A stretch of DNA of 64,000 nt, taken from contig NZ_SZQA01000007.1 of NCBI RefSeq assembly GCF_005233835.1, forward strand, positions 1 to 64,000. The letters run 5' to 3'. The position numbers were made by a program, and so were the translations under genes. How positions within the stretch are numbered: the first letter of the stretch is position 1; every line of letters starts with the position of its first letter. The notes under the pieces are model-generated. The model was not told where the DNA came from. It saw nothing but the letters and a program-made list of their open reading frames with translations, and made no database searches. Positions 9,201 through 28,447 of the stretch are shown in pieces. The DNA is from Herbidospora galbida (GTDB taxonomy: Bacteria > Actinomycetota > Actinomycetes > Streptosporangiales > Streptosporangiaceae).

Positions 9201-12200
9201 ACGGCCGAGGCCGCGCGGATCCTCACCGGCGAAGCGGCCCAGGACGGTCTGCTCTCCCGGGTCGACACCGTGCAGGGCCGCCAGACGGCGTTCCTGTTCG
9301 CGGGCGTCGGCGAGCAGTACCCGGGCATGGTCACCGAGATCTACGAGCGCGAACCCGCGTTCCGCGCGGCCCTGGACGAATGCCTTGAGCTGCTGCGCGG
9401 CCCGCTCGACGGCGTCGACCTGCCCGGCCTGGTCGCCGGCGGGCGCGGCGCGGGCGCCGACCTGGCCGTCCTGCTCGGCCGGGCCGGGAACGCCGAGGAC
9501 GACCGGGCCGGCACGCTGAAGCGCACCGAGATCGCCCAGCCGGCCCTCTTCGCGATCGAGTACGCCCTGGCCCGCACCCTCATGGCCTGGGGAGTGCGGC
9601 CCCGGCTGATGCTCGGCTACAGCCTCGGCGAGTACGTCGCGGCCTGCCTCGCGGGCGTGCTCTCGCTGCCCGACGCGATCGCCCTGGTCGCGCACCGGGC
9701 CAAGCTGATCGGCGCGATGCCCGCCGGGTCGATGGTGGCCGTCTCGATGCCCGCCGAGGACGTGCGCCGCAAGTTCCGGCTGGAGCGGCGCGGCCTGGAC
9801 CTCGCCGCCGTCAACGGCCCGCAGGTCTCGGTCGTGGCCGGGCCGTCGGACGAGATGGAGCGGCTCGTCGCCGAGCTGCGCCGGGCCGACATCCCGTGCC
9901 GGGCGCTGGACACCACGCACGCGTTCCACTCCCGGATGCTCCAGCCGGTCACCGGCGAGCTGACCGACTGGGTGAAGGCCAACATCCGGCTGAACCCGCC
10001 GGAGCTTCCCTACATCTCCAACCTGACGGGCGAAATCGCCGACGCCGACCTGGTCTGCGACCCGGGTTACTGGGCCGAGCACATGTGCGGCACGGTGCGC
10101 TTCGGGAAGGGCGTCGAGACGCTGCTGGCCGACCCCGAACTGGCCGTGGTCGAGATCGGGCCGGGTCAGTCGCTCGGCGCGCTGGTCCGCGGGGCGGGCT
10201 GCCCGCCCAAGCGGTGGCCGCTGATCCTGCACGCGCTGCCCGGCGCGAGCGACCCGCGCCCGGACGACGAGGCGCTGGCCGGGTGCCTGGCCCGGCTCTG
10301 GCTGGTCGGCGCGGAGCTGGACTGGAACGCCTACCACGGGCGGCTGCCCGAGGCCGCGACCGCCGGCCTGCCGGGCCGGATCCCGCTGCCGACCTACCCC
10401 TTCCAGCGGCGCCGCTACTGGATCGAGGGGTCGGCGGACGCGCCCCAGCCGAAGGCGAAGCCGCTGGCTTTGGAGGGCGGCAACCTCTTCGACGCGATCA
10501 CCAGCCTGCCCAAGCTGCCCGAGGAACAGTGGCTCCACCTGCCGGTCTGGCGGCAGACCGCGGCCCCCGCGCCCGCCGCGGACCGGCCCGGCACCTGGCT
10601 CGTCTTCACCCGCGAGGGCGCGGCCGACGAGGTCACCGCCGAACTCGCCGCGACCGGCGCGACCGTCATCCAGGTCCGCCCCGGCGGGGGCTACGCCGCC
10701 GTCGGGGACGGCCACACGGTCCGCCCGGGAAACGTCGCCGATGCACTCGCCCTCCTGCGCGGCCTGCGCGCCGCCGGTCACGGACTCGACCGGGTCGTGC
10801 ACCTGTGGACCCTGGAGCCCGGCGAGGACACCGTCGAGTACGGCCTGCACACCCTGGTCGCCCTGGCGAGGGCGGCGGGCGAGTCGGGCGTCGACGGCTG
10901 GTCGCTGGACGTCGCCGTCTCCGGCACCCAGGAGGTCCTCCCCGGCGAGGTCGGCAACCCCGACGGCTCGACGCTGATCGGCCCGTCGCTGGTGATCCCA
11001 CTGGAGTACCCGAGGGTCACCACCCGCTTCATCGACCTCGACACCCCCTCAGGCCTGGTCGCCGAGCTGGCCCGCCCGCAGACCGACCGGATCGTGGCGC
11101 TGCGCCGGGGCCGCCGCTACCTGCCCGGCTACGAGACCATGGCCACCCCGGACGCCACTCCGCTGCGTGACGGCGGCGTCTACCTGATCACCGGCGGCCT
11201 CGGCGGCATCGCGCTCGGCCTGGCCGAGCGGATGGCCCGCGACGTCAAGGCCAAACTCGTCCTGCTCGCCCGTTCCGGCCTGCCGGGCCGGGACGAGGCC
11301 GCCCGGCGGGTCCAGGCCGTCCGTGACCTCGGCGGCGAGGTCGAGATCGTGGTCGGCGACGTGGCCGACCCGGCCGCCGTGAAGCGGGCGGTCGACACGG
11401 CGATCGAGCGGTTCGGCGCGCTCCACGGCGTCCTGCACGCGGCCGGCCTCCCGGCCATGGGCCTGATGCAGTTCAAGCGGCCGAGCGAGCTGGACGCCGT
11501 CCTCGCCCCCAAGATCGCCGGGACGCGGGCGCTGGCCGAGGCCCTCCGCATCGGCGAGCCCGGCGAGATCGAGCTGGACTTCCTGGCGCTGTTCTCCTCG
11601 ATCACCTCCGCCACCGGCGGCGGTCCCGGCCAGGTGGACTACTGCGCCGCCAACGCCTACCTCGACGGCTACGCGCTGCGCCTGGCCGCGACCGGCCGCA
11701 AGGTCGTCTCGATCGACTGGGGCGAGTGGACCTGGAACGCCTGGGAGGCCGGCCTGGCCGGTTACGACGAGGGCCTCCAGACCTTCTTCAAGGAGAACCG
11801 GGCCAGGGTCGGCATCGGCTTCGAGGAGGGGTACCGCTCGCTGCTGCGCGCCCTGGCCAGCGGCGAACCCCGGGTGATCGTCTCCACCCAGGACTTCGAG
11901 ACCGTCGTCACCGGCAGCGCGCGGTTCAACCTGGAGGCGGTGACCTCGCCCGCCGTGGCGGGCGCCGGCGGGGACCGGCATCCCCGGCCCGAGCTGGTCA
12001 CGCCCTACCAGGAGCCGTCCGGGCCGAAGGAGGAGGCCATCGCGGTCATCTGGGGCGACGCGCTCCGCCTCGACCGGATCGGCGTGCTCGACAACTTCTT
12101 CGAGCTGGGCGGCAACTCGCTGCTGGGCGTCAGCATCGTGGCCGCCCTGCGCCGCGAGTTCGCCCTCGCCGAGCTCCCGCCGCACATCTTGTACGAGGCG

Positions 12201-12394: not shown

Positions 12395-13243
12395 ATGACA
12401 GTTATCGGTGTGGTGGGCGCCGGCGTGATGGGCGTCGGCGTGGCCCAGAACCTGGCGCAGACCGGCCACGACGTGGTCCTGGTGGACAAGGACGAGGAGA
12501 TCCTCGCCGCGGCCCGCGCCACCATCTGGCGCAACGCCAGGATGAGCCGCCTGATGGGCGGCCCGGCCCTGGACCCCGACGACGTGCTGTCCCGGATCAC
12601 CACCGCGGTGGGCGCCGAGGCGGTCGCCAAGGCCGACGTCGTCATCGAGAACGTGACGGAGAACTGGGACGTCAAGCGGTCGGTCTACGAGACGATGGAC
12701 GCGGTCTGCGGGCCGGACACGATCTTCGTCGTCAACACCTCCGCGATCCCGATCACCAAGGTCGCCGCCGTCACCGGCCGCCCCGACAAGGTGGTCGGGG
12801 TGCACTTCATGAACCCGGTCCCGGCCAAGCCGGCGTGCGAGCTGATCCCCGGCTTCCACACGACCGCCGAGACCGTCGAGCGGGTCCGCGACCTGCTGTC
12901 GGCGATGGGCAAGAAGGCCATCGACGTCAAGGACGCCTGCGGGTTCGTCTCCAACCGGGTCCTGATGCTCACCGTGAACGAGGCCGCGTTCCTCGTCCAC
13001 GAGGGCGTCGCCACCGCCGAGTCGGTCGACGAGGTGTTCCGGAGCTGTTTCGGCCACCCGATGGGCCCGCTGGAGACGGCCGACCTGATCGGGGTCGACA
13101 CCATCCTCTACAGCGTGGAGGTGCTCTACGAGCACTACGCCGACAGCAAGTACCGCCCTTGCCCCCTGCTCAAGCAGATGACCGACGCCGGCCTGCACGG
13201 CCGCAAGTCGGGCCGCGGTTTCTACACCTACGACGCCAACTAA
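12395..13243 (+). CDS. 3-hydroxyacyl-CoA dehydrogenase family protein, FkbK-like (extender-unit biosynthesis)
   Basis: A 282-residue NAD-dependent dehydrogenase with the Rossmann loop GVVGAGVMGVGVAQN at the N-terminus, the HFMNPVP segment of hydroxybutyryl-CoA dehydrogenases and a C-terminal SGRGFYTY end. Length matches FkbK/AsmM-type enzymes of methoxymalonyl-ACP pathways, where this family oxidises the C3-hydroxyl of glyceryl-ACP. A GGAGAGG ribosome site precedes ATG 12395, 41 bp after the two-module PKS, and ACP, acyl-ACP dehydrogenase and FkbH genes follow directly. That context argues against an ordinary fatty-acid or butyrate role. The pathway assignment is family knowledge plus context; the exact substrate is inferred. 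Confidence 0.88.
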   Translation: MTVIGVVGAGVMGVGVAQNLAQTGHDVVLVDKDEEILAAARATIWRNARMSRLMGGPALDPDDVLSRITTAVGAEAVAKADVVIENVTENWDVKRSVYETMDAVCGPDTIFVVNTSAIPITKVAAVTGRPDKVVGVHFMNPVPAKPACELIPGFHTTAETVERVRDLLSAMGKKAIDVKDACGFVSNRVLMLTVNEAAFLVHEGVATAESVDEVFRSCFGHPMGPLETADLIGVDTILYSVEVLYEHYADSKYRPCPLLKQMTDAGLHGRKSGRGFYTYDAN

Positions 13244-13253: not shown

Positions 13254-13502
13254 ATGTCCGGCAACGCCAAGGAACAGATCCTCGACTTCGTGCGCGCCCG
13301 CTACCCGCAGGCGGAGATCGACGAGACCCAGGACATCTTCGCCCTGGGCTTCGTGAACTCGTTGTTCGCCATGGAGCTGGTGATGTACATCGAGAAGACC
13401 TTCGAGGTCACCATCCCCAACGACGAGTTGAAGATCGACAACTTCCGGTCCGCCAACACCATGGCGGAGCTGGTGGACCGGCTTTCCCCCGCGCGGGTCT
13501 GA
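13254..13502 (+). CDS. Discrete acyl carrier protein, FkbJ-like
   Basis: An 82-residue free-standing carrier protein. The likely phosphopantetheine Ser lies in LGFVNSLFAMEL, and the rest shows a typical ACP helix pattern with an acidic surface. A strong AAGGAG site precedes ATG 13254, starting inside the stop codon of the upstream dehydrogenase. In FkbH-FkbK pathways such an ACP receives a glyceryl unit from 1,3-bisphosphoglycerate and carries it through oxidation to hydroxymalonyl- or methoxymalonyl-ACP. It sits between the FkbK- and FkbI-like genes, the usual cassette composition. The Sfp-type transferase at 16491-17135 could activate it. Confidence 0.92.
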   Translation: MSGNAKEQILDFVRARYPQAEIDETQDIFALGFVNSLFAMELVMYIEKTFEVTIPNDELKIDNFRSANTMAELVDRLSPARV

Positions 13503-13503: not shown

Positions 13504-14652
13504 ATGGCGACCCTGGCTGAGACCGCGCCGGGCACCCTTCAGGTCACCGACAGGAAGTCCGCCCGCGCGTTCGTCGACACCCACATCGTCCCGTACGCCG
13601 ACGCGTACGACCGGCAGGGCCGGGTCCCCGAGGAGCTGCTGGAGCGGATGACCGCCGCCGGGCTCTGGGCGCCCTTCCTGCCCCGGGAAACCGGGGGAGG
13701 GGGGATGGACCTGGTCACCCTCGGCGAGGTCCACGAGGAGGTCGGCCGGGGCTGCTCCTCGGTGCGCAGCCTGCTCACCGTGCACACGATGGTGTCGTGG
13801 GCGGTGCAGCGGTGGGGCAGCCCGGCCCAGCGCGAGCGGTGGGTGCCGGCGCTCGGCCGGGGAGACGTGCTCGCCGCGTTCTGCCTGTCCGAGCCCGGCG
13901 CCGGCAGCGACGCCTCCGGGATCGCCAGCCACGTCGTGGAGAAGAACGGCGGCTGGGTGCTCAACGGCGTCAAGAAGTGGATCACCAACGGCCAGCGGGC
14001 CGATCTCTTCCTGGTCTTCGCCCGCACGGCCACCAGCATCGGCGCGTTCCTGGTCCCCAGGGACAGCCCCGGCGTCGAGGTGACGCCGATCGAGGACGTG
14101 CTCGGCACCCGGGCGTCGATGATCGCGGAGATCTCCTTCCGCGACGTCGCGCTCGGCCCGGACGCGCTGCTCGGCCCGAGCGGCTTCACCGCCGGCATGG
14201 TGCTGACCGGCACCCTGGACCTCGGCCGCTACAGCGTGGCGACCGGCTCGGTCGGCATCATCCAGGCCGCGCTGGAGGCCTGCGCCGCGTACGCCTCCCG
14301 CCGCACCGTCGGCGGGACGCTCCTCAAGGACCTGCCGCTGATCCAGGCGAAACTCTCCGACATGGTCACCGACGCGCGGGCGGCCCGCCTGCTCGTCGCG
14401 GAGGCCGGCCGGCTCAAGGACGCCGGCGAGGCGTCCACGATCATGGCGACCTGGGTGGCGAAGTACTTCGCCTCCACCGCCGCCGCCCGGCACGCGTCCG
14501 AGGCGGTCCAGATCCACGGCGCGAACGGCTGCGGCCACGACTACCCGGTGGCGCGGCTGTACCGGGACGCCAAGGTCATGGAGATCATCGAAGGCAGCAA
14601 CGAGATCCAGCGCATCACCATCGCCAGCCAGGCAGAACGGGAGATCATCTGA
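13504..14652 (+). CDS. Acyl-CoA/acyl-ACP dehydrogenase, FkbI-like
   Basis: A 382-residue flavoprotein of the acyl-CoA dehydrogenase fold. Visible family segments are CLSEPGAGSDASG, KKWITNGQ and the C-terminal EGSNEIQR that holds the usual position of the catalytic Glu. In methoxymalonyl-ACP pathways FkbI homologues act on ACP-bound glycerate-derived intermediates. It begins one base after the ACP stop and its stop overlaps the FkbH-like start by one base, so translation is probably coupled. A plain beta-oxidation role is unlikely in this position. Confidence 0.9.
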   Translation: MATLAETAPGTLQVTDRKSARAFVDTHIVPYADAYDRQGRVPEELLERMTAAGLWAPFLPRETGGGGMDLVTLGEVHEEVGRGCSSVRSLLTVHTMVSWAVQRWGSPAQRERWVPALGRGDVLAAFCLSEPGAGSDASGIASHVVEKNGGWVLNGVKKWITNGQRADLFLVFARTATSIGAFLVPRDSPGVEVTPIEDVLGTRASMIAEISFRDVALGPDALLGPSGFTAGMVLTGTLDLGRYSVATGSVGIIQAALEACAAYASRRTVGGTLLKDLPLIQAKLSDMVTDARAARLLVAEAGRLKDAGEASTIMATWVAKYFASTAAARHASEAVQIHGANGCGHDYPVARLYRDAKVMEIIEGSNEIQRITIASQAEREII

Positions 14653-15731
14653 TGACCGTGGTCGACGAAACCCCCCCTGTCGCCCCGGAGAAGCCGGTCC
14701 AGGGCCGGATCAAGTGCGTGGTCTGGGACCTGGACAACACGCTGTGGGACGGCGTGCTGCTGGAGGACGGCGAGGTCACCCTGCGGCCCGAGGTGGTGGC
14801 GCACATCCACCGGCTCGACCAGATGGGAGTGCTGCACTCGATCGCCAGCAAGAACGACAGCGCCGCCGCCCTGGAGAAGCTGCGCGAGTTCGGCGTCGAG
14901 GAGATGTTCCTGCACCCGCAGATCAACTGGAACGCCAAATCCGACTCCATCGCGCGCATCGCGAAGGCGCTCAACCTCGGGCTGGACGCGTTCGCCTTCG
15001 TCGACGACCAGGAGTTCGAGCGCGGCGAGGTCGGTCACGGCCTGCCCGCCGTCACCCTGGTCGACATCGTGGACCTGGACGAGGCGCTGGCCCGGCCGGA
15101 GTTCATCCCCCGGTTCGTCACCGACGAGTCCGCCCAGCGCCGCCCCATGTACCAGGCGCAGGCCGCACGCGACGACCTGGAGTCCGGCTTCGTCGGCACC
15201 AACGAGGAGTTCCTGGCCGGGCTGGACATGCGGTTCACCATCGCTCCCGCCGTGCGGGACGACCTGCAGCGGGCCGAGGAGCTGACCGTCCGCACCAACC
15301 AGCTCAACTCGACCGGCCGCACCTACTCCTACGAGGAGCTGGACGAGCTGCGCGAGTCGCCCGACCACCTGCTGCTGGTCGCCTCCCTGACCGACCGGTT
15401 CGGCAGCTACGGCAAGATCGGCCTCGCCCTGGTGGAGAAGGGCGAGAAGGTGTGGCGGCTCAACATGATGCTGATGTCCTGCCGGGTCATGTCCCGCGGG
15501 GTCGGCATGGTGCTGCTCAACCACATCATGCGGCTGGCCCAGGCGGCCGGGGTGAGCGTGCGCGCCGACTTCGTGGAGACCGGCCGGAACCGGATGATGC
15601 AGGTCACCTACGCCTTCGCCGGATTCCGCGAGGTCGGCAGAGACGGCGTCCACGTGGTGCTGGAGGCCGACCTGAGCACCGTCCAGCCGCCTCCGCCCTA
15701 CGTCCACTTGGAGATCGTCGATGAGCTTTGA
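14652..15731 (+). CDS. FkbH-like HAD-superfamily protein (glyceryl-S-ACP synthase)
   Basis: A 359-residue protein of normal FkbH length. The HAD motif VVWDLDNTLWDGVL lies near residue 22 and is followed by ASKNDS. The C-terminal half has a GNAT-like segment (TDRFGSYGKIG, RGVGMVLLNHI). FkbH proteins take 1,3-bisphosphoglycerate, remove phosphate and load a glyceryl group onto the discrete ACP, the first committed step to hydroxymalonyl-/methoxymalonyl-ACP extenders. The start overlaps the FkbI-like stop (TGATG). No O-methyltransferase (FkbG) lies in this operon or elsewhere in the cluster part seen here, so a hydroxymalonyl rather than methoxymalonyl unit is possible. Confidence 0.94.
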   Translation: MTVVDETPPVAPEKPVQGRIKCVVWDLDNTLWDGVLLEDGEVTLRPEVVAHIHRLDQMGVLHSIASKNDSAAALEKLREFGVEEMFLHPQINWNAKSDSIARIAKALNLGLDAFAFVDDQEFERGEVGHGLPAVTLVDIVDLDEALARPEFIPRFVTDESAQRRPMYQAQAARDDLESGFVGTNEEFLAGLDMRFTIAPAVRDDLQRAEELTVRTNQLNSTGRTYSYEELDELRESPDHLLLVASLTDRFGSYGKIGLALVEKGEKVWRLNMMLMSCRVMSRGVGMVLLNHIMRLAQAAGVSVRADFVETGRNRMMQVTYAFAGFREVGRDGVHVVLEADLSTVQPPPPYVHLEIVDEL

Positions 15732-16500
15732 CGACGCGGCCGGCCGGTGGATGCCGTTCGCCGGCCAGACCGGCGCGGGCCCCGGCGCGCTCGCGCTGTA
15801 CTGCCTGCCGCACGCCGGCGGCGCCGCCTCCACCTTCCGGAGCTGGCAGCGCGTCCTGCCGGGGGTGGCCGTCCAGCCCATCCAGCTCCCGGGCCGGGAC
15901 AGCAGGCTCAGGGAGCCCGCCTACGACCGGATGGGCCCGCTGGTGGCCGACCTCGCCGAGATCGTCCAGTCGGACGTCTCGCTCGGCTCGATCGACCGCA
16001 GATACGCCCTGTACGGCCACAGCCTCGGCGCGCTCGTCGCGTTCGAGCTGGCCCGCGAGATCCGCCGGCGCGGCGGCCCGCCGCCGGTGCACCTGTTCGT
16101 CTCCGGTTCCGTCGCTCCGCAGCTCGCCTACGAGGACGGCAAGCCGGTCGGGCAGATGTCCCGGCCGGAGGTCGTCGCGATGCTCCGCGAGCTGGGCGGC
16201 ACGCCGGAGTGGCTGCTGACCGATCCCGGTGTGCTGGACATGATCCTCCCGGCCGTCGTCGCCGACTTCACGATCAAGGAGACCTACGAGTACCGCGACG
16301 AGAAGCCGCTGGACCTGCCCATCACGGCCATGCCCAGCACCGACGACTCCCGGATCAGGGCCGAGACCGTGACGCCGTGGGGGGAGCAGACCACCAGGGA
16401 GTACGAGCTCCAGCCGTTCGTCGGCGGCCACTTCGCGGTGTTCGAGCAGGCCGCGCTGGCCCACAAGATCATTTCCAAGGCCCTGCTCAAATGGATGTGA
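15721..16500 (+). CDS. Type II thioesterase (editing thioesterase)
   Basis: A 259-residue alpha/beta hydrolase with the TEII opening LYCLPHAGGAAS, nucleophile motif YGHSLGALVAFEL and terminal His in FVGGHFAVFEQ. Such enzymes clear mis-acylated or stalled carrier proteins in PKS/NRPS assembly lines. It overlaps the FkbH-like gene by 11 bp and the PPTase gene by 10 bp, so all three are translationally coupled. It is the only thioesterase in the visible cluster because no PKS carries a fused TE. A role in final release is therefore possible but unproven. Confidence 0.95.
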   Translation: MSFDDAAGRWMPFAGQTGAGPGALALYCLPHAGGAASTFRSWQRVLPGVAVQPIQLPGRDSRLREPAYDRMGPLVADLAEIVQSDVSLGSIDRRYALYGHSLGALVAFELAREIRRRGGPPPVHLFVSGSVAPQLAYEDGKPVGQMSRPEVVAMLRELGGTPEWLLTDPGVLDMILPAVVADFTIKETYEYRDEKPLDLPITAMPSTDDSRIRAETVTPWGEQTTREYELQPFVGGHFAVFEQAALAHKIISKALLKWM

Positions 16501-17135
16501 CGGACCCCTTCGTGTGGCGGGTCCACCTCGATCAGCCGGATGGCGCGAGGTGGGCCCCGCTGCTTTCCGGGTCCGAGCGGGCCCGCGCGGCGGCGCTGGC
16601 GACACCGGTCGAGCGCCGCCGCTTCACGGTCGCGCACGCCGCCCTGCGGGCCGTCCTCGGCGGGCTCACCGGCCTGCCGCCGGCCGATCTCGTCTTCGGC
16701 GCGGAGCACAACGGCCGGCCGTACCTGGTCGGCCACCCGGTCGACTTCAACCTGTCGCACTCCGAGGAGTGGGCGTTGATCGGGGTGGCCCCGCCGGGCC
16801 TGCGGGTCGGCGTCGACGTCGAACGCGTCCGCGACGACCTCGACCACCTGGCCATGGCCCGGCATCTCTACCATCCCGCCGAGGTCGACCACCTGACCCG
16901 GGCCGCCTCCCCCGAAGAGGAGTACTTCAGGCTCTGGTGCGCCAAAGAGGCGTACGTCAAGGCGACCGGGGCGGGCCTGGCCGGCCTGCGGAACGCGCCG
17001 GTGACGCGCGAAGGGAACGCGACGGTGGGTTCGTCGCGTTCCCTTCGCTGGCTCGACGTGGCGCCCGGCTACGCGGGCGCCGTCGTCACGACCGCTGTCA
17101 CGACCGCTGGGACACCGGCACCACGTACCGGTTGA
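16491..17135 (+). CDS. 4'-phosphopantetheinyl transferase, Sfp type
   Basis: A 214-residue protein with the Sfp-type motifs [21 protein letters not shown] and [13 protein letters not shown] (acidic Mg/CoA-binding residues and the catalytic KEA). It transfers phosphopantetheine from CoA to the conserved Ser of carrier domains and should prime all PKS ACPs and the discrete ACP here. ATG 16491 lies inside the end of the thioesterase gene. It is the last gene of the rightward operon, and its 3' end overlaps the opposite-strand acyl-CoA dehydrogenase gene by 38 bp. Confidence 0.95.
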
Positions 17136-18258
17136 ACACCAGGTCCCGCAGCACGTCGTCACCGCCCTCCACGATCGACACGTACCGCACGTCCCGCAGC
17201 AGCTTGCCGATCACCGAGTCGTGGGTGTAACCGACGCCGCCGAACATCTCCGACGCGGCCGAGGCGATCTGCCAGCCGGTCTGGCCGCAGAACATCTTCG
17301 TGGTCAGCGCCGTCTTCAGCGTGCCCACCCGGAGGAACTCCGCGGCCGCGTCCGGCCGGGCCGCGATCTCGTCGTACCGGCGGGCCGCCGCCAGGCACTG
17401 GTTGGCCATCACGTCGATCTGCATCTCGAACTGGCCCAGCTTGGCCGCGAACACCGCGTTGCCGGCCAGGATGGCGCCCTTGACCTGTTTGGTCCTGCCG
17501 TACTCCAGGCACACGTCCCGGATCCGGCGGGCGATGCCGAGCGCCGTGGTGGCGATCAGGATGCGGCTGGCGTTCAGCCCCACCTCCAGCAGCCGCAGCC
17601 CGTTGCCGCGCAGCACGTTGGCGGCCGGCACCCGGCAGTCGGTCAGCGTCACCTGGTAGGTCGCCGAGGAGCGCAGCCCCAGCACGTCCCAGCGTTTGTC
17701 GATCCGGATGCCCGGCGTGTCCCGGGGAACCAGCACCGCGAGGTAGCCGGCCGGGTCGTGTTCGGCGCGGGCGACCACCACCAGGAACTCGGCGAAGTCG
17801 GCGTTCGTGGAGAACGCCTTCTCCCCGTTCAGCACGACGTCGTTCCCGTCGCGGCGGGCGGTCGTGGTGATCCTGGCCAGCTCGCTGCCCGCCGCGTGCT
17901 CGCTGCCGAGCGTCGCGCAGAACCCGCTCCCGGCCACCAGCTTGCCCAGGTAGTGGTCCCGCAGTTCGGGGGACCCGTACCAGGAGACCATGCTGGTCGT
18001 CAGGACCGGGATGAACAGGGTGAACGCGGCGCCGGCGTCGGCGTAGGCGAGTTCGGCGACGATCCGCACGCCGTCCTCCAGGCCGAGGCCGGGGCCGCCG
18101 TGCTCCTTCGGCACCCACCAGTTCGCCAGGCCGGTGTCCGCGAACCGCTCGTACAGCGGGAGCGGCGCCTCGGCCAGCGAGTCGAGGTAGGCGTCCTTGC
18201 CGATGAGTTCCCTGCGCGCGAACGCCTGGACCGCCCGCACGTGCTCCGGCTGCCTCAT
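17098..18258 (-). CDS. Second acyl-CoA dehydrogenase family protein in the PKS cluster
   Basis: A 386-residue flavoprotein of the acyl-CoA dehydrogenase family. It shows [13 protein letters not shown] near the N-terminus, [15 protein letters not shown] in the middle beta-domain, and a terminal [12 protein letters not shown] where the catalytic Glu normally lies. It begins inside the stop of the AT-less PKS (ATGA overlap) and ends the leftward operon. It is only distantly similar to the FkbI-like protein at 13504-14652, so it is probably not a copy. Possible roles are desaturation of an ACP-bound chain, compensating for absent DH domains, or extender/starter supply. No direct evidence separates these. 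Confidence 0.88.
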
Positions 18259-21200
18259 TCGGTCTCCCGTTCGTCGAGCAGCTCGGCCAGCAGGCGCACC
18301 GTGGGGCACTCCAGCAGTCCCGTCACCGGGACCGACGCGTTCAGCGACGTGCGGATCCTGGTGGTCAGCTCGATCGCGAGGAGCGAGTGGCCGCCCAGCT
18401 CGAAGAAGTTGTCGGTGGCGCCGATCGGCTCGATGCCCAGCACCCGCGACCAGATGCCGGCCAGCGCGGCCTCGGTGCCCTCCCTCGGTTCCACGTAGGG
18501 GTTGTTGAGATCCGGCCTCGGATGGCGCTCCTGGTCGTCCGGGGTGTCCTCGGCGCTGTGGATGTCGCCGGTGACCCACTGCGCCAGCCGGCCTTCCAGC
18601 GGACCGGTCGAGATGACCAGATGGCCGACCCGGTCGGTGGCCGACAGGGCCCGCTCGAAGACGTCGACGCCTTCCGCCGGGGCCATCGCGAAGCCGACCA
18701 CGGCCTCGCTGTGGCCTTCCAGACGGCCGGCGTCGATGCTCCAGGTGTCCCAGTCGACGGTCACCCAGCGGGCTCCGCCCGCCACCCGGGACTGCCGGAT
18801 GTAGGCGTCCAGCGCCGCGTTGGCCGCGGCGTACGGCGCGAGCGTCATGCCGCCCAGCACCGCCGCGATGGACGACAGCGTGATCCGCCGCTCGGCGGCG
18901 TGCCCGCCGAGCACCTTCTCCAGCACGTGGAAGCCCCTGACCTTGGTGGACAGGTGGGCGTCGCACTGGGCGCGGTCCATCAGGTGGGCGAAGTTGAAGT
19001 ACGCCCCGTCCTGCACGCCCGCGCCGTGCACCACCACGTCGATCCCGCCGAACCGCTCGACCGCGGCCTCGACCACGGCCGCCATCCGCTCCTCGTCCGC
19101 CACGTCCGCGGACAGGCAGAGCACGGTCGCGCCCCGGCTCTCCAGGTCCAGGATGTTGCGGATGTGCCGGGCGGTGCGCTCGCCGCCGGGGGGCGGCTCG
19201 GCCAGGAACGCCGCCCACTCCTCGCGGGGCGGCAGCGGCGACCGTGCGGTCAGGACCAGGTTGCAGCCGTACGCGGCGGCCAGGTGCCGGGAGAGCACGA
19301 GCCCGACGTCGCCGAGGCCACCGGTGATCAGCACGGTCTCGCCGTCTCTGATCGGGCGGGTCTCGTCGGTCGGCTCCTCGATCGGGAACTGCTCGTAGGT
19401 CCGCAGCCAGGTCTCGCCGGCGCGGACCGCGACCGGGCCCTCGTGCGGGGCCAGGATCGCGGCGAGGATCTGGACGGACTCGTCGCCGGCCGCCAGGGGG
19501 TCGGCGTCGATCGTGCGGGCCCGGATCCGGGGGTTCTCCTGGGCCAGGCTGGGGGCCAGCGCCGCCAGCGTGGAGTGCTCCGGGTGGCGCAGGTCCGAGC
19601 CGAGCACACCGACCCCCCCCGAGGTGAGCAGGGCGAGCTCGGCGCGCGGCGCGGAGCCGCTGTTGTCGACCAGTTCCCTGGCCAGTGCCAGCACGGAGTA
19701 GAAGCCGCGGCGCTGTTCGGCGTCGAAGTGCCCGGCCGGGTCCTGACCCGGTCCCGGCTCGGTCGCGCCCAGGCTGAACCCGTGGACGATCGCGCGGGGC
19801 GCGACCAGCAGCGAGTACAGCAGCTCGGCCATGTCATCGGGCTGGTCCAGCCGGATGGTGAAATCTCCGGAGTCGTCCTGATCGAAGCTCTCGCCGCTCC
19901 GTACCGCCGTGACCTCGGCGCCCGCCGCGTTCAACCGGTCGATCAGGGCCTCGCCCCGGGCGTCGTCGGCGAAGACCAGCCAGGGACCGGCCGCCCGCAG
20001 CCGCTCGTCCAGGTCGGCGACCGCGAACGGCCGCTGCCTCCAGGTCGGCAGGTACGTCCACTTCGACCGGTCGAACGTCTTGTCGTTGCTCACCGGGGCG
20101 GCCTGCGTGCTCGGGTTGGCCTTCACCCAGTAGCGGCGCTTCTGCCACGGGTAGGTGGGCAGCTCGACCCTGCGGCCCGCGCCCCGGTGCAACGCGGTCC
20201 AGTCGATCGCGCTGCCGGCCTGCCACAGCCGGGCCAGCGTGGCCAGCAGCCACTCGGCCGCGGGCACCCCGTCGACGGGGGCGACGGCGATCTCCTCCGA
20301 CGCCTGACCGGCGTCCTCGCGCGACACCTGGACGCCGAGCCGCCGCAGCCCGTCCGCCAGCGCGCCGACCGCGTCGTGCCGGTCGGTGCCGTCCTCGATG
20401 CCGATCACGGCGTCGACCGCCGCGAGCAGCTCCGGCCACCAGGCCTCCGGCACGCCCTCCGGCGTGACCAGGCGCACCTTCGGGTTCCGGCGCTGGGTCT
20501 TGGCGTTGATCCAGCGGGAGGGGTCGGTCAGCGCCACGACCGCGTCGTCGCGGTCGGCGACCACGACCGCGCGCCGCAGCGCGAACCCGCCGCGCGACAT
20601 CTGCAGCGTGAACGCCACGTCCGCGATGTCCTCGCCGGAGTCACCGGCCAGATGACCGGCCAGGCGCTCGCCGAGCTCGTTGAGCGCGTTCTCGTCGCCC
20701 GCCGAGAACGTCAGCAGGTGCGGGCCCCGCCGGTGCGGGAGGGCCGGGCGCGGCGGCGCCTGCTCCAGCACCACGTGCGCGTTGGTCCCGCCGAGGCCGA
20801 ACGAGCTGACCCCGGCCCGGCGCGGGTGCGGACCCTCCGGCCACGGCCGGTGCTCGGTCAGCACGGTGAACCGGTCCTGCGCGGTGGCCAGGGCCGGGTT
20901 CGGCTGGGCGTAGTCCGGCACACCCTGGAGCAGCTCGTGCTTGAGGCTCAGCGCGGCCCGCATCAGACCGGTCACGCCGGAGGCCCGGTCGAGGTGGCCC
21001 AGGCTCGGCTTCAGCGAACCGAGCACGGCCGGGGTCTCACGCGGCTGGGTGAACACCCGGTTCATCGCGGCCAGCTCGATCGAGTCGCCCAGCATGGTGC
21101 CGGTGGCGTGGCACTCGACGTAGCCGATGGTGTCGGGCTTGACCCCGGCCACGCCGAGCGCCGACTCGATCACGTCGGCCTGGCCGTCCACGCCCGGCGC

Positions 21201-22049
21201 GGTGTAACCGGCCCGCATCCGGCCGTCGTTGTTGGAGGCCGAGCCGAGGATGACGGCGTGGATCACGTCGCCGTCGGCGAGCGCGTCCGACATGCGCTTG
21301 AGCGCCACCGTGCCGACGCCGCTGCCCATCACGGTGCCGCCCGCCTCGGCGTCGAAGCTGCGGACCCTCCCGTCCGGCGACATGATGCCGCCCTGCTCGT
21401 ACAGGTAGCCGGCCGGCTGGGGGAGCGGCGTGAACGCGCCGCCCGCCAGCGCCATGTCGCACTCGTACGTCAGCAGGCTCTGGCACGCCAGGTGCACCGC
21501 CACCAGCGACGTCGAGCAGAACGTCTGCACCGACACCGCCGGTCCGCGCAGCCCCAGCTTGTACGACACCAGCGAGGCCAGCGAGTCACGCTCGTTGCCG
21601 ATCGCCATCAGCATCGCGCCGCCCGGCGCGTTGGCCAGATGGAAGATGTTCTTCACCACGTAGTCGGGGAACCCGCACCCGCCGAACACCGCGACCTGTC
21701 CCGGCACGTCGGTGGGGCAGTAGCCGGCGCTCTCCAGGGCCTCCCACGAGGTCTCCAGGAACAGCCGGTGCTGCGGGTCCATCATCTCGGCCTCGCGGGG
21801 GTTGATCCCGAAGACCCCCGCGTCGAACATCTCCAGGTCGGTCAGCGGGCCGCCGATCCGCACGTAGCGCGGGTCGGCGATCAGGCCGGGCTCGACGCCG
21901 GTCTCGCGCAGCTCCGCGTCGGTGATCTCGCGCAGCCCCTTGATCCCGGACAGTACGTTGCGCCACAGGTCGGCGACGCTGTCGGCGCCCGGGAAACGAC
22001 CGGACATGCCGATCAGGGCCACCGCCGAGGCGTAGTCGGTTTCGGTCAT
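18255..22049 (-). CDS. Type I polyketide synthase module lacking an AT domain (KS-[no AT]-KR-ACP)
   Basis: A 1264-residue single-module PKS. The KS has Cys178 ([10 protein letters not shown]), VECHATGT (variant of VEAHGTGT) and [10 protein letters not shown]. After the KS-AT linker (VAFTLQM, near residue 470) the roughly 300-residue AT is replaced by about 80 residues without any GxSxG or HAFH motif (about 20260-20535). The usual post-AT linker [14 protein letters not shown] follows. The KR is complete ([26 protein letters not shown]) and the ACP Ser1222 lies in [10 protein letters not shown]. The protein stops right after the ACP (LLDERETE) with no basic docking tail and no TE, suggesting it acts last. 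The start overlaps the stop of the upstream PKS by 4 bp. Extender loading must come from an AT in trans or from another module. Confidence 0.95.
20260..20535 (-). other. Site of the missing AT domain in the single-module PKS
   Basis: Within the PKS at 18255-22049, the stretch between the KS-AT linker and the post-AT linker is only about 80 residues (from [15 protein letters not shown] to the [17 protein letters not shown] linker). The other three modules have about 300 residues of AT here. No nucleophile elbow or HAFH motif is present. The reading frame is intact, so this looks like an evolved or precise deletion rather than a fresh frameshift. Confidence 0.85.
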
Positions 22050-25000
22050 GACGTCCTTCCGCTCCGGAGCATGTTCCGCCGCTGTTCGATGCGCGAGGTG
22101 CGCTGCTGTTCGCGCACGTCGGCCGTCTGCTCTTCCTTGGCCTCGCCCGCGGTGGCCGCTTCGGCGAGCGACGAGATCGTGGGCGACTGGTAGAGGATGT
22201 GCGGTGGGAGGTAGGTCAGGCCGAGCGCCTTCCGGACCTCCGTGATGATCTCCATGCCCAGCAGCGAGTTGCCGCCCAGCTCGAAGAAGTTGTCGTGCAC
22301 CCCGACCGACTCCAGGCCGAGCGCCTCGGTCCACACCTCGGCGATCTTCTCCTCGGCCTCGTTCTGCGGCTCCACGAACGCGGTCGACAGGTCCGGCCTG
22401 GGGTGCCGGCCGAAGGCGTCCCTGAGCTTCTTGACCGTCGCCTGGTGGCTCTCGATGGACGACTTGCGGCTCATCGCCACCAGCGGCGCGAAGTCCTGGG
22501 TGGAGGCGACCACGTGCCGTTCACCGCTGTTCAGCACCCGGACGAGGGTCTCGAAGCCGTCCTCGAAGCTGAGCCCGAACAGGCCCCGGTACCAGGTGAA
22601 GTACTGCTTGGAGCCCTCGTCGTAGTTCTCGAGGCCCTCCGTCCAGCCGTTCCAGGTCCACTCACACCAGTCGACCGAGGTGACCAGCGCGCCGGGCAGC
22701 GGGTCGCTGAGCGCGAAGGAGTCCAGGAACGCGTTGGCCGCGCAGTAGTCGACCTGGCCGGCGCCGCCGCCGGTGGCGGAGGTGGTGGAGGAGTAGAGGG
22801 CGAGGAAGTCGACCGGCACGTCCTTCAGCACCTCGGCCAGGGCCAGCGAACCGGCCACCTTCGGCGCGAGCGTGCGCTCGATGTCGGCCACCGTCTTGAA
22901 CTGCATCAGGCCCACCGCCGGCACGCCCGCGCAGTGCAGGACGCCGTTGAGCTCGCCGAACCGCTCGATCGCCGCGTCGACCGCCCGCCGCACGTCCGCG
23001 ACCTTGGACACGTCGCCGGCCACCGTGACGACCTCGGTGCCGTTCGCCTCCAGGCGGCGCAGGCCCTCGACCCGCCGCCGCACCTCGTCGGCCGTGGTGG
23101 GGGCGGCCAGGATCTGGCTCCACTGCTCCTTCGGCGGGACCGCGGTGCGTCCCATCAGGACCAGGTTGGCCTGGTACTTCGCGGCCAGCAGCTCGGCCAT
23201 GCCCAGGCCGATGCCGCCCAGACCGCCGGTCACCAGGTACGTCCCGCCGCGCCGCACGTCCACGACCGGGGTGGTTCGGTCGATGTTGGCGGCGTCCAGC
23301 ACCTCGTAGCCCGGCGTCCAGCGGCGGCCTTCGCGCAGCGCGACGACCTGGTCGGCGGGGTCGGCCCGCAGCTCGGCCAGCAGCCCCCGCAGGGCGGCCG
23401 GTCCGGTGCCGGCGTCGATGTCGATCAGGCGGGTTTTGACCCTCGGGTACTCGACGGGGATGAGCCGGGTCGGGCCGAGCAGCGTGTTGCGCTCGGGGAG
23501 GATGTCGTCGCCGGTCAGTACCTTCTGGCTGCCGACGGTGACGATGTCCAGCGCCCAGGTCGGCAGGCCGAGGTCGACCGCGGCCCTGGCGAACGAGACC
23601 AGCGTGTACAGGCCGCGCTTCAGGCACTCCTGGGTGGCGTCGCCGTCGGCGGGGGCCGGGTCGGCCGTCCACAGGTGCACGACCCGCTCCGGCGCGAAGT
23701 CACGGCCGCCGAGCGTCCGCAGGGCGGCGACGAGGTCGTCCTGCGAGCCGGGGCGGACGACGAAGCCGTCGGGGGTGTCGGCGTAGGCGTCGCCGGGCCG
23801 GACCAGGACGACCTCGTGGCCGAGCGCGTCCAGTGCGGCGCGTAAGGAATCGGTCAGCGTGTCGGCCAGACCGGCGTCGGTGAAGAGCAGCCACTTGGTC
23901 TGCTCCTCCTCGCGCACCAGCTGGGGCGCGGTCTGCCGCCACACCGGGACGTTGATCCACCGCTCGTCCGGCAGGCGGGGCAGCGCGGTCGCGATGCTCG
24001 TGGGGTCGCTCTCGTCGAGCATGGGCACGCCGGTGTTCAGCGCCGACTGGTCGATCTCCAGCCAGTAGTCCTGGCGCTCGAACGGATAGGTCGGCAGCGG
24101 CACCCGGCCGGGCGTCCAGCCGGTGTCGGAGCCGGTGTGCAGGGCGTCCCAGTCGATGGGCACCCCGGCCAGCCAGAGTTTGCCGACGGCCGTCGCGGTG
24201 GCGGCGAGCGTCTCCACCTGGTCGCCCTGGCCGGGCAGGGTGGTGACGATCAGCGGCCACTGGTTGCGGTCGCAGTCGGGGTGGCCGCGGGTCAGCGCGC
24301 CGAGCGACTGCCCGGGGCCGATCTCGGTCAGGGCCATGTCGCCGCCGCGCAGCACGTGCGCGAGCCCGGCGCCGAACTCGACCGTCTCGCACATGTGGCG
24401 GGCCCAGTAGCCGGGGTCGGTGACGAGCTCGGCGGTGGCGATCTCGCCGGTGACGTTGCTGACGTAGGGGATGGCCGGCGGGTTCAGCGTCACGTTCGCG
24501 CTGATCCAGGAGGTCAGCTCGGCCGCGACCGGTTCGAGCATCCGGGAGTGGAAGGCGTGCGTGGTCTGGAGGCGGCGGCAGCCGATCTCGGCCGCTCTGA
24601 GCCGCGCCGCGGCGGCCTCGACGCTCTCCTCCGGCCCGGCCAGCACGAGCTGCGAGCCGGTGCGGACCGCGACGTCGAGGTCGAGGTCACCCAGCACCGC
24701 CTTCAGCCGCCTCTCGTCGGCGGCCACGGCCAGCATGCCGCCCTCCGGCTGGGAGGTGATCAGCTTGGCCCGGTAGGCGACCAGCTTGAGCGCGTCGGCC
24801 AGTGACAGCACCCCGGACAGGCAGGCCGCGACGTACTCGCCGAGGCTGTAGCCGACCATGATCTCCGGCTTGACGCCCCAGCTCATCAGCAGCCGGGCCA
24901 GCGCGTACTCGGCGACGAACACGGCGGGCTGGATGAGATGCGCGTTCGGGGCCGATCTGGGGGAGGCGTCTGTGGTCCGCCCGAGCAGCGTGGCCAGGTC

Positions 25001-26761
25001 GGGGGCGGTCGCGGGTCCGGCCGGGACGAAGACGTCCGACAGCTGGGACGCCTCGGTGAGGCCCAGCAGGCTGACGCACTCGTCCACGTCCGCGCGGAAG
25101 GCGGGCTCGGCCCCGTAGAGGGCGGCGACCATGCCCGGATACTGCTCGCCGACGCCGGCGATCAGGAACCCGGTCTTGCGGCCGACCGCCGTGTCGGTGC
25201 GGCCCAGCGGCCCGGCCGGGTCCGCGAGCAGCGCGGCGGCCCTGGCGTTGCCGTCGGCGATGACGACCTTGCGGTGGTTGAAGACCTTGCGGCCCTTCTG
25301 GAGGGTGTAGGCGACGTCGCCCAGGTCCAGGCCGGGATCGGCGGCGATGCGCTCGCCCAGGCGGGCCGCCATCCGCTCGGCGGAGGCGGCCGACCGGGCC
25401 GACACCGGGAGGATCTGCCAGCGGCGGGGCCGCTCCCGGCGCGCGGCCGGGACGGGGGCCTCGACGATGATCGCGTGCGCGTTCGTGCCGCCCATGCCGA
25501 GCGAGCTGATCCCGGCGACGCGCGGCCGGTCGGCGCTGCGCGGCCAGGGGGTGGGCTGGGCCGTGACGTAGAACGGGCTGGTCTCGAAGTCGATCTCGGG
25601 GTTCGGCGAGGTGTAGTGCAGCGTCCCCGGGATCAGCTCGTGCCGCAGCGACTGGACGACCTTGATCAGGCCGGTCACGCCGGAGGCGCGGTCGAGGTGG
25701 CCGACGTTCGGCTTGATCGAGCCGAGGATGCAGTACTGCTTCTTCTCGGTCTGGCCGAACGCCCTGGTCAGGGCCGCGACCTCCATCGGGTCGCCGACCT
25801 CCGTGGCGGTGCCGTGCGCCTCGACGTACGAGATCTGCGACGGGTGCACGCCCGCCTTCTCGATCGCCTTGGCCACGCAGCGGCGCTGGCCGTCGATGCT
25901 GGGAGCCAGGTAGCTGAACTTCATCGCGCCGTCGTTGTTGATCGTCGAGGCGCGGATCACCGCGAGCACGGTGTCGCGGTCCTCGATCGCCTTGCCCAGG
26001 CGCTTCAGCGCGACCACGGCCGCGCCGTCGCCGAACATGCTGCCCCGGCCCTGCGCGTCGAAGGTCCGCACATGGCCGTCGGGCGACTCCTGGCCGCCCT
26101 CCTCCCAGAGGTAGCCGGTCCGGTCCGGAATCCGGACCGACACGCCGCCCGCGAGCGCCATGTCGCACTCGTCCCGGCGCAGCGCCTCACTGGCCAGGTG
26201 CACCGCGACCAGCGAGGTCGAGCAGAACGTCTGCACGGTCACGCTCGGCCCGGACAGGTCCAGCCGGAACGACACGTTCGTGGCCAGCGAGTCCTTGTCG
26301 TTGCCGATCATCAGCGCGGACGTGTCGATGCCCATGGCGAACGCCTGCAGCCGGGTCAGCAGGTAGCCGCTGATGTTCATGCCGGCGAACACGCCGACCG
26401 AGCCGCGGCTCTCCGGCGAGCCGTACCCGGCCGACTCCAGGACCTCCCACACGCATTCGAGGAAGAGCCGCTGCTGCGGATCGGCCAGCGTGGCCTCGCG
26501 CGGGTTGTAGCCGAAGAACGCCGCGTCGAAGCCGCGGATGTCGTCGAGAATCGGCCGGCTCCGGACATAGTTCGGCTTCGAGAACGTCGCCGCCGGCACG
26601 CCCGCCTCAATCAGTTCCTCATCCGAGAAACGCGTGAAGGATTCGACGCCGGTGCTGATGTTCCGCCAGAACTTCTCGACGTCATCGGCTCCCGGGAATC
26701 GACCGGCCATGCCGATGATCGCAATATCGGAATCGTCCACGGGTGGATGTTGCTGCGTCAT
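22046..26761 (-). CDS. Type I polyketide synthase, one module (KS-AT-KR-ACP)
   Basis: A 1571-residue protein starting at ATG 26761 (MTQQHPPVDDSD), preceded by a GGGG-rich site; a GTG 18 bp further upstream is also open. KS Cys180 ([10 protein letters not shown]), VEAHGTAT and [10 protein letters not shown] are present. The AT has IAGVGEQYPGM, Ser639 in GYSLGEY and HAFHS. The KR has VTGGLGGIG, YSSTTSATGG and VDYCAAN. ACP Ser1499 lies in ELGGNSLLGMEI. A long charged tail with [15 protein letters not shown] follows the ACP and may dock to the AT-less PKS, whose start overlaps this stop by 4 bp. It lies 39 bp downstream of the ABC permease gene, so exporter and PKS are probably co-transcribed. 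Confidence 0.97.
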   Translation of the reverse strand: MTQQHPPVDDSDIAIIGMAGRFPGADDVEKFWRNISTGVESFTRFSDEELIEAGVPAATFSKPNYVRSRPILDDIRGFDAAFFGYNPREATLADPQQRLFLECVWEVLESAGYGSPESRGSVGVFAGMNISGYLLTRLQAFAMGIDTSALMIGNDKDSLATNVSFRLDLSGPSVTVQTFCSTSLVAVHLASEALRRDECDMALAGGVSVRIPDRTGYLWEEGGQESPDGHVRTFDAQGRGSMFGDGAAVVALKRLGKAIEDRDTVLAVIRASTINNDGAMKFSYLAPSIDGQRRCVAKAIEKAGVHPSQISYVEAHGTATEVGDPMEVAALTRAFGQTEKKQYCILGSIKPNVGHLDRASGVTGLIKVVQSLRHELIPGTLHYTSPNPEIDFETSPFYVTAQPTPWPRSADRPRVAGISSLGMGGTNAHAIIVEAPVPAARRERPRRWQILPVSARSAASAERMAARLGERIAADPGLDLGDVAYTLQKGRKVFNHRKVVIADGNARAAALLADPAGPLGRTDTAVGRKTGFLIAGVGEQYPGMVAALYGAEPAFRADVDECVSLLGLTEASQLSDVFVPAGPATAPDLATLLGRTTDASPRSAPNAHLIQPAVFVAEYALARLLMSWGVKPEIMVGYSLGEYVAACLSGVLSLADALKLVAYRAKLITSQPEGGMLAVAADERRLKAVLGDLDLDVAVRTGSQLVLAGPEESVEAAAARLRAAEIGCRRLQTTHAFHSRMLEPVAAELTSWISANVTLNPPAIPYVSNVTGEIATAELVTDPGYWARHMCETVEFGAGLAHVLRGGDMALTEIGPGQSLGALTRGHPDCDRNQWPLIVTTLPGQGDQVETLAATATAVGKLWLAGVPIDWDALHTGSDTGWTPGRVPLPTYPFERQDYWLEIDQSALNTGVPMLDESDPTSIATALPRLPDERWINVPVWRQTAPQLVREEEQTKWLLFTDAGLADTLTDSLRAALDALGHEVVLVRPGDAYADTPDGFVVRPGSQDDLVAALRTLGGRDFAPERVVHLWTADPAPADGDATQECLKRGLYTLVSFARAAVDLGLPTWALDIVTVGSQKVLTGDDILPERNTLLGPTRLIPVEYPRVKTRLIDIDAGTGPAALRGLLAELRADPADQVVALREGRRWTPGYEVLDAANIDRTTPVVDVRRGGTYLVTGGLGGIGLGMAELLAAKYQANLVLMGRTAVPPKEQWSQILAAPTTADEVRRRVEGLRRLEANGTEVVTVAGDVSKVADVRRAVDAAIERFGELNGVLHCAGVPAVGLMQFKTVADIERTLAPKVAGSLALAEVLKDVPVDFLALYSSTTSATGGGAGQVDYCAANAFLDSFALSDPLPGALVTSVDWCEWTWNGWTEGLENYDEGSKQYFTWYRGLFGLSFEDGFETLVRVLNSGERHVVASTQDFAPLVAMSRKSSIESHQATVKKLRDAFGRHPRPDLSTAFVEPQNEAEEKIAEVWTEALGLESVGVHDNFFELGGNSLLGMEIITEVRKALGLTYLPPHILYQSPTISSLAEAATAGEAKEEQTADVREQQRTSRIEQRRNMLRSGRTS

Positions 26762-26800
26762 CAACACGCCCCTATTCACCGAATTTTGAGGTGGAAATTC

Positions 26801-27595
26801 TTAGAGCAGCCCGCCGCGGCCCCAGCCGCGGGTGAGCCGGCGGATCGCGAACGCGCCGCAGACCAGCGCGATGCCCAGCAGGATCGCGGCGGGCAGCATC
26901 GTTCCGGCCGTGTCGCCGACGACGGCGGCCTGGAGCATCTTCAGGGCCCAGTAGCCCGGGGACAGCTGCGCGGCGACCTGCGCCCACTCCGGCATCAGGC
27001 TCAGCGGCACCAGCGCTCCGCCGAGCGAGCTGAGCGTCAGCGCGCCCACGTCCGCGATCACGCTGAGCTCGCCGTGGCTGCGCACGATCGCGGCCAGCAG
27101 CGCGCCGATCGCCAGCAACGTGAACGCCCAGATCAGGATGGACCCCAGCACCAGCGGGACGTTGCCGGGGACGGGCAGGCCGATGACCAGGCAGCCGTAC
27201 ACCAGCAGGATGGTCTGCTGCGCGATCATCACCAGATAGATCGGCAGGGTCTTGCCGATCAGCAGCTCGGCGGCCGGCGCCCGGCTCACCCGGAGCCGGT
27301 CCCAGGTCTTCCAGGTGCGCTCGGCCAGGATCGCGTTGCCCGCGATGGAGATCGCGAAGACCGAGAACATGACCAGCAGCCCGGTCACCACCTTGGTGGT
27401 GCCGCCCTCGACCGCCCGCACGTAGAGCGGCTTCAGGACCAGCATCAGGACCATGGGCATGACCACGTAGCTGATCGTCTGGCCGGGGTCGCGGAGCCGG
27501 ATGAGCGTGTTGTTGTTCGCCAGCGCGCGGATCCGGTAGAGGGATTCGCGCAGGGCGGCGGCCGGCCCGGCGCGGTGGCCGGTGTCAAGAAGCAT
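26801..27595 (-). CDS. ABC-2 type transporter permease
   Basis: A 264-residue membrane protein of the ABC-2 permease type. About six hydrophobic segments are visible, including the stretches around VVMPMVLMLVLKPLY, VVTGLLVMFSVFAIS and ILLGIALVCGAFAI. The central SPGYWALKMLQAAVVG region is typical of drug exporters of this class. Its start overlaps the upstream ATPase gene by 11 bp, and the PKS gene follows after 39 bp. It probably exports the polyketide product or gives self-resistance, inferred from position. Confidence 0.92.
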   Translation of the reverse strand: MLLDTGHRAGPAAALRESLYRIRALANNNTLIRLRDPGQTISYVVMPMVLMLVLKPLYVRAVEGGTTKVVTGLLVMFSVFAISIAGNAILAERTWKTWDRLRVSRAPAAELLIGKTLPIYLVMIAQQTILLVYGCLVIGLPVPGNVPLVLGSILIWAFTLLAIGALLAAIVRSHGELSVIADVGALTLSSLGGALVPLSLMPEWAQVAAQLSPGYWALKMLQAAVVGDTAGTMLPAAILLGIALVCGAFAIRRLTRGWGRGGLL

Positions 27596-28421: not shown

Positions 28422-28425
28422 CGTG

Positions 28426-28435: not shown

Positions 28436-28447
28436 GAGTATTCACCT

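What the first reader, a model, noticed from the sequence alone, without database searches (positions are those of the whole stretch)
18255..22049. AT-less module inside an otherwise cis-AT polyketide line
Three complete modules in the window have their own AT, but this one goes from the KS-AT linker through about 80 non-AT residues into the post-AT linker. The frame, KR and ACP are intact. No discrete trans-AT gene is in the window. An in-line AT-less module beside genes for an ACP-bound extender suggests loading by an unusual route, such as an AT from a neighbouring module or a trans-AT to the left.
Basis: partly seen in the sequence, partly recalled or inferred. Interest (0 to 1): 0.8.

Follow-up and report, generated by a model that had tools for sequence, protein, structure and literature searches.

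The report
AT-less last module of polyol PKS
An enzyme module that adds a building block to a bacterial natural product has lost the part that fetches the block; the loss is old and shared by dozens of species, and the module is probably supplied by the matching parts of neighbouring modules.

Summary
Window 18255-22049, on the MINUS strand, encodes KS-KR-ACP with no acyltransferase (AT) domain. It is neither an error nor a scar in one strain: the AT is missing in all 31 aligned rows, while KS, KR and ACP catalytic residues are kept. The module belongs to a butyrolactol-type contiguous-polyol PKS. It sits beside hydroxymalonyl-ACP genes. All four ATs in the window carry GYSLG, the motif type of zwittermicin ATs that take ACP-tethered extenders. 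AT-less KSs from Streptosporangiaceae, Pseudonocardiaceae and Streptomycetaceae form one clade. Its sister is a Chloroflexota module that still has a GYSLG AT, so the AT was probably lost once from a hydroxymalonyl module. A discrete AT lies to the left in relatives, but it belongs to a separable type II-like cluster and is absent from other lineages that have the module. Published 13C labelling of butyrolactol shows hydroxymalonyl, not malonate, in its last unit. Best reading: terminal hydroxymalonyl extension, its ACP loaded in trans by GYSLG ATs of sister modules. The KS/KR/ACP architecture is already tabulated in print (PMC4599437); I found no discussion of its loading.

The parts
18255..22049 (-). 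AT-less PKS module KS-KR-ACP (1264 aa), probable terminal extension module
20250..20504 (-). Vestigial AT segment (protein residues 516-600) between KS-AT linker and post-AT linker
22046..26779 (-). PKS C: KS-AT(GYSLG, 24836-24853)-KR-ACP, ATGA overlap with the AT-less gene
3243..12353 (+). PKS B: two KS-AT(GYSLG at 5154-5171 and 9615-9632)-KR-ACP modules; the second (B2) is the favoured AT donor
1..3231 (+). PKS A (5' end cut by contig end): AT(GYSLG, 508-525)-KR-ACP
12395..13243 (+). 3-hydroxyacyl-CoA dehydrogenase-like, hydroxymalonyl-ACP route (family named from recall)
13254..13502 (+). Discrete ACP, probable hydroxymalonyl carrier
13504..14652 (+). Acyl-CoA dehydrogenase, hydroxymalonyl-ACP route
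14652..15731 (+). FkbH-like glyceryl-ACP forming protein (family named from recall; 56% relative in Tengunoibacter)
15721..16500 (+). Discrete thioesterase
16491..17135 (+). Putative phosphopantetheinyl transferase (named from sequence/recall)
17098..18258 (-). Second acyl-CoA dehydrogenase-like gene, ATGA overlap with the AT-less gene; role unknown (named from similarity to the first ACAD)
26801..28670 (-). ABC transporter permease (26801-27595) and ATPase (27585-28670), syntenic in relatives

Best explanation
This is the terminal extension module of a butyrolactol-type contiguous-polyol PKS. Hydroxymalonyl is made on the discrete ACP (13254-13502) by the FkbH/ACAD/HADH genes. The module's KS condenses that unit, its KR reduces it, and the discrete TE probably releases the chain. 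Its own AT was deleted once in an ancestor and a folded vestige remains. Its ACP is loaded in trans by the ACP-extender ATs (GYSLG) of sister modules; the best single candidate is the second AT of PKS B (B2 type), the one seen in each line where that part of the cluster could be examined. Shown here: AT absence, one KS clade, GYSLG ATs, gene linkage, intact catalytic residues. Shown by others for butyrolactol: last unit from hydroxymalonyl. Inferred: terminal position, orthology to the butyrolactol protein itself, trans loading and its donor.
For: No AT in 31 of 31 aligned rows; KS His/Lys/His, KR Ser/Tyr/Asn and ACP Ser in 31 of 31, KS Cys in 29 with 2 rows gapped. KS dN/dS 0.14 among 7 Herbidospora (21 pairs). 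GYSLG in all four window ATs; ZmaA has GYSFG and ZmaF GYSLG (PMC4207774, passages); ZmaA-AT is the top PDB hit of the PKS C AT, 169.4 bits, nearly tied with 8xju at 167.3. The 24 GYSxG ATs of my set form one clade, 100/98. AT-less KSs: one clade, 100/100 with 10 rows (bootstrap not fully settled) and 100/99 with 6 rows; sister L084_10025 has an AT with GYSLGE. FkbH near the AT-less gene in 28 of 31 loci L053-L083 (27, L071); the other 3 are cut by contig ends. In S. cattleya and Streptomyces G884 the four polyol modules have two intact ATs: the first is degenerate (GHGVG), the last absent. Butyrolactol C1-C8 labelled by glucose, not acetate (PMC5355916); its last PKS, 1169 aa, is listed KS/DH/KR/ACP, without AT (PMC5932044). 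AT-less tails after the ACP 5-16 aa in 30 loci, PKS C 34-45 aa, PKS B 33-58 aa where matched well. AT-null DEBS was rescued in trans by a discrete MAT (PMC6164871, passages).
Against: No biochemistry exists for this module, and no call shows an AT of one module charging the ACP of another; the DEBS precedent used a discrete enzyme. The carrier-recognition 'RXR' position is only partly like ZmaA (PCR/ACR/GCR against MCM). A discrete AT co-occurs in 29 of 31 AT-less genomes of the order. By sequence the KS's best PDB hits are 7zma, OzmN KS2 and OzmQ KS1, the last two from the trans-AT oxazolomycin system, and OzmN/OzmQ fall in the same broad KS group, though outside the AT-less clade. B1 was not seen in Sphaerisporangium, so not both PKS B ATs are universal. 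In Tengunoibacter the sister module is fourth of five, not last.
Confidence: 0.62

Rival explanations
1. A dedicated discrete trans-AT (C49:21251-22156, 301 aa, GHSVG...NAFH) encoded left of the PKS loads the module.
For: Orthologues of 75% identity or more occur in 31 of 345 genomes of the order, and 29 of these also carry the AT-less module; in the eight genomes looked at it is on the same contig, roughly 55-61 kb away.
Against: It lies inside a type II-like block that is present without the AT-less module in G301 and G312. No orthologue in Actinokineospora, Labedaea, Sphaerisporangium or the Catenulisporales MAG, best identity 34-39%. Its GHSVG motif is the CoA-linked type of PMC4207774, while butyrolactol's last unit is hydroxymalonyl.
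Confidence: 0.1
2. Housekeeping FabD (MAT) charges the ACP with malonyl.
For: MAT rescues AT-null DEBS module 6 (PMC6164871, passages).
Against: Malonyl would leave a CH2 at the last unit; in butyrolactol C1-C2 is glucose-labelled, not acetate-labelled, and assigned to hydroxymalonyl (PMC5355916).
Confidence: 0.06
3. The module does not extend: a sister module with an AT acts twice (stuttering) and this one only passes the chain on.
For: Stuttering was proposed for irumamycin, whose last module has an inactive Ser-to-Gly AT (PMC11672594, passages).
Against: KS, KR and ACP catalytic residues are kept in the aligned rows and KS dN/dS is low. In the butyrolactol type two extra rounds would be needed.
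Confidence: 0.12
4. The KS uses hydroxymalonyl directly from the discrete ACP, with no AT step.
For: The extender is already ACP-bound; an AT is absent.
Against: The module keeps its own ACP with its serine in 31 of 31 rows; sister modules keep ATs.
Confidence: 0.06
5. Assembly error or recent pseudogene.
For: None for this locus; one relative (L076) has a KS split over two frames.
Against: Same architecture in 31 rows from separate assemblies, and printed for five type strains (PMC4599437).
Confidence: 0.01

Closest known systems
Butyrolactol A PKS (Streptomyces TP-A0882, t1pks-1)
   Same: Hydroxymalonyl-ACP genes; last PKS of 1169 aa, listed without AT, directly before dehydrogenase, ACP, acyl-CoA dehydrogenase, FkbH and TE genes (PMC5355916, PMC5932044). 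S. cattleya and G884 show the same order by sequence.
   Different: Different starter and reduced part; no PKS C beside it; in S. cattleya and G884 the AT scaffold is cut far shorter and the first polyol AT is degenerate, whereas it is intact here.
Herbidospora pks-1 (Komaki 2015, PMC4599437)
   Same: Same cluster family; KS/KR/ACP of 1261-1265 aa listed for five type strains, nine modules in all.
   Different: Its ATs are listed as malonyl or methylmalonyl and the product is likened to polyenes; the missing AT and the hydroxymalonyl genes are not discussed in the section read.
Zwittermicin ZmaA/ZmaF acyltransferases
   Same: GYSFG/GYSLG motif for ACP-tethered extenders (PMC4207774); ZmaA-AT (4QBU) is the top, nearly tied, PDB match of the PKS C AT.
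   Different: ZmaF is a discrete AT; here the presumed donors are embedded in sister modules.
Oxazolomycin OzmQ KS1 (4OQJ) and OzmN KS2 (4WKY)
   Different: Their KSs fall outside the AT-less clade; that system uses discrete ATs (OzmC in PMC6164871, the rest recalled).

Membership tests
butyrolactol-type contiguous-polyol PKS | Hydroxymalonyl-ACP genes beside the PKS | tested here: met
   window; relatives: FkbH in 28 of 31 loci L053-L083, other 3 cut by contig ends
butyrolactol-type contiguous-polyol PKS | ATs of the ACP-tethered-extender type (GYSxG) | tested here: met
   the carrier-recognition position matches only in part
butyrolactol-type contiguous-polyol PKS | Terminal AT-less KS-KR-ACP of common descent | tested here: met
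   S. cattleya in the clade; G884, G830, G966 architecture; TP-A0882 itself not available, terminal position inferred
butyrolactol-type contiguous-polyol PKS | Product with contiguous hydroxyl carbons | not testable with these tools
   no product known for this cluster
trans-AT PKS | Modules in general lack an AT | tested here: not met
   four other modules in the window have ATs
trans-AT PKS | KS groups with KSs of trans-AT systems | tested here: not met
   nearest tree relatives are AT-bearing modules; 13 trans-AT KSs sampled, two of which (OzmN, OzmQ) lie in the same broad group, and trans-AT KSs are the best PDB hits
trans-AT PKS | Dedicated discrete AT conserved with the module | tested here: not met
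   no orthologue of the C49 AT in 4 lineages; its block is separable
trans-AT PKS | LINKS or docking helices after the KS | not tested
   not looked for; KS part of the model is poor
pseudogene or assembly artefact | Broken frame or lost catalytic residues | tested here: not met

The most novel reading that the evidence does not exclude
The polyol block is a natural AT-sharing system inside a cis-AT line. Embedded hydroxymalonyl-ACP ATs of a few modules serve the ACPs of others on separate proteins, so ATs in the block can be lost: once by deletion in the last module, and separately by decay in the first polyol module of the butyrolactol type. It would be a caught intermediate between cis-AT and trans-AT synthesis, specific to ACP-tethered extenders.
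Probability: 0.5. Interest if true: 0.75.

Novelty: new variant of a known kind. Interest (0 to 1): 0.55.

Why it matters
If sister ATs really share their extender, the rule that ties one AT to one module fails in a defined, widespread setting, and hydroxymalonyl units might be placed by ACP choice alone. It also predicts that these conserved clusters make butyrolactol-like polyols with up to ten contiguous oxygenated carbons (inference from five polyol modules), not the malonate-derived polyene-polyol suggested in 2015.

Tried and rejected
Discrete AT as partner: followed with co-occurrence searches and neighbourhood checks, then rejected as the main route. PKS C as sole donor: weakened, because PKS C is not next to the AT-less gene in L074, L075 and L083 nor in S. 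cattleya, G884, G830 and G966. Both PKS B ATs as universal donors: mended on rechecking, as the Sphaerisporangium line shows an A-type and a B2-type module but no B1 type; Labedaea was seen only at its last AT. Fused PKS C plus AT-less protein in L069: dropped, since the long frame starts after the PKS C KS start. Sequencing error and local deletion: rejected.

Limits. A1 model (25 of 31 rows): mostly under pLDDT 50 in the KS; only residues 441-620 were trusted. A2 used 29 of 31 rows. The trees used part of what was held: one search took 10 AT-less polyol rows and 12 of the 46 loci L084-L129, KS domains over 380 aa only; one search left out the nono, L058, L060 and L077 rows; one search left out ATs of 200 aa or less. 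One search used 7 Herbidospora rows; the linker (0.37), KR part (0.36) and ACP (0.28) have dN/dS not far from the vestige (0.45). One search ran on 32 loci; poor or wrong-module matches (L213 and L084; the PKS B and C columns where the module is absent) were not used. The fetched stretches of G629, G403, G530 and G124 show no module of this AT-less kind. Paper searches gave no discussion of this module's loading in listings or passages seen; PMC4611616 is not held and the 2015 butyrolactol genome paper (fnv155) was not looked up.
Full report
What is there. The frame at 18255-22049 reads on the minus strand as a 1264-aa protein with KS, KS-AT linker, KR and ACP and no AT match. It overlaps by ATGA with PKS C upstream and with an acyl-CoA dehydrogenase-like gene downstream. 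The neighbours are PKS A, PKS B (two modules) and PKS C, all with ATs; a discrete ACP, an acyl-CoA dehydrogenase and a TE by Pfam; 3-hydroxyacyl-CoA dehydrogenase, FkbH-like and PPTase genes named from their sequence and recall; and an ABC transporter. The window begins at base 1 of contig C84, so the left part of the cluster lies on other contigs.

The AT loss is old and shared. One genome scan gave 77 loci; 30 of them (L053-L082) plus the window were aligned. All 31 rows lack the AT and hold a variable vestige, shorter still in Actinokineospora (L071) and Labedaea (L075). KS, KR and ACP catalytic residues are kept (KS Cys seen in 29, gapped in 2). Among seven Herbidospora, median dN/dS over 21 pairs is 0.14 in the KS, 0.28 in the ACP, 0.36 in the KR part, 0.37 in the linker and 0.45 in the vestige: the module is under constraint, the vestige least, by a small margin. 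In 345 genomes of the order, 30 have a match across the whole linker region with no room for an AT and one more, G193, has fragments; G140 has a second, diverged AT-less module.

Which extender. All four window ATs carry GYSLG. In PMC4207774 (passages) ZmaA-AT (hydroxymalonyl-ACP) has GYSFG and ZmaF (aminomalonyl-ACP) GYSLG, against GHSxG in the CoA-linked ATs of its table. The PKS C AT has ZmaA as top PDB match, nearly tied with 8xju. The 24 GYSxG ATs of my set form one clade at 100/98 against 28 others. The carrier-recognition position is only partly like ZmaA (PCR/ACR/GCR against MCM).

Family and origin. PMC4599437 (abstract and section 10 read) lists the same cluster as pks-1, with KS/KR/ACP of 1261-1265 aa in five type strains; the missing AT is not discussed there. 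Butyrolactol's PKS list (PMC5932044, passages) ends in a 1169-aa protein given as KS/DH/KR/ACP; C1-C8 of the product are labelled by glucose and not by acetate (PMC5355916, parts 1-2 of 3 read). S. cattleya (L213) and Streptomyces G884 show by sequence a polyol module with a degenerate AT (GHGVG), two with GYSxG ATs, then AT-less, then HADH-ACP-ACAD-FkbH-TE. Three of 295 genomes of G403's genus hit the S. cattleya query at E<=1e-165, and all three have the AT-less architecture. KS trees put AT-less KSs of three families in one clade (10 rows, 100/100, bootstrap not fully settled; 6 rows, 100/99). Its sister is a Tengunoibacter module with a GYSLG AT, fourth in a line of five such modules; that genome has an FkbH/ACAD/ACP/HADH set about 206 kb away. 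The simplest history is one AT loss from a hydroxymalonyl module. As to an origin from trans-AT systems: the sampled Bacillus and Paenibacillus KSs lie apart, but OzmN and OzmQ lie in the same broad KS group, and trans-AT KSs are the best PDB sequence hits.

Who loads it. A discrete AT on C49 co-occurs with the module: 29 genomes have both, 2 only the module (G213, G193), 2 only the AT (G301, G312), of 345. But it sits in a type II-like block found without the AT-less module in G301 and G312, and Actinokineospora has the full line without it. PKS C is not beside the module in seven of the lines seen. The B2-type AT of PKS B is the one seen in each line where that part could be examined; B1 was not seen in Sphaerisporangium. 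In the butyrolactol type only two intact ATs stand among four polyol modules. Sharing of sister ATs is therefore the favoured route; it is inferred, not shown. The AT-less protein ends 5-16 aa after the ACP in 30 loci, against 34-45 aa for PKS C and 33-58 aa for PKS B where well matched, which suggests that it is the last module.

Verdict. The odd loading is likely, through sister ATs rather than the left-hand trans-AT. The architecture is in print as a table entry; the explanation was not found in searches, which cover open-licence papers only.

Noticed in passing
G000:C49:18744-31500 (L138/L139), also G301:C17 and G312:C1: Type II-like cluster with a 746-aa protein bearing two KS stretches, ACP, SDR, a GcvT-like protein, FAD enzymes, SnoaL and a discrete AT; linked to the polyol PKS in the eight genomes looked at, present without the AT-less module in two. 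Product unknown.
   Followed up: partly
L213:6671-10750 and G884:C4:10276-14300: First polyol module of the butyrolactol type has a degenerate AT (GHGVG, catalytic Ser replaced by Gly, only about 80 AT residues matched), in two species.
   Followed up: yes
L076 (Nonomuraea dietziae) around 10.0-10.75 kb: The AT-less orthologue has its KS split over two frames in this assembly; error or decay not decided.
   Followed up: no
L256 (G140:C51:124702-128454): A second, diverged AT-less KS-KR-ACP beside HADH, ACP and ACAD matches and a GYSVG module in one genome.
   Followed up: partly
G703:C2:1829687-1853196 (Tengunoibacter tsumagoiensis): Five consecutive KS-AT(GYSLG)-KR-ACP modules in a Chloroflexota genome, probably another contiguous-polyol line; two of its ATs are near-identical.
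   Followed up: partly
window 34978-38808: 1276-aa protein with 13 WD40 stretches by Pfam, outside the cluster.
   Followed up: no
window 17098-18258: Second acyl-CoA dehydrogenase-like gene overlapping the AT-less gene; matched in most relatives but not in L074, S. cattleya or G884; role unknown.
   Followed up: no
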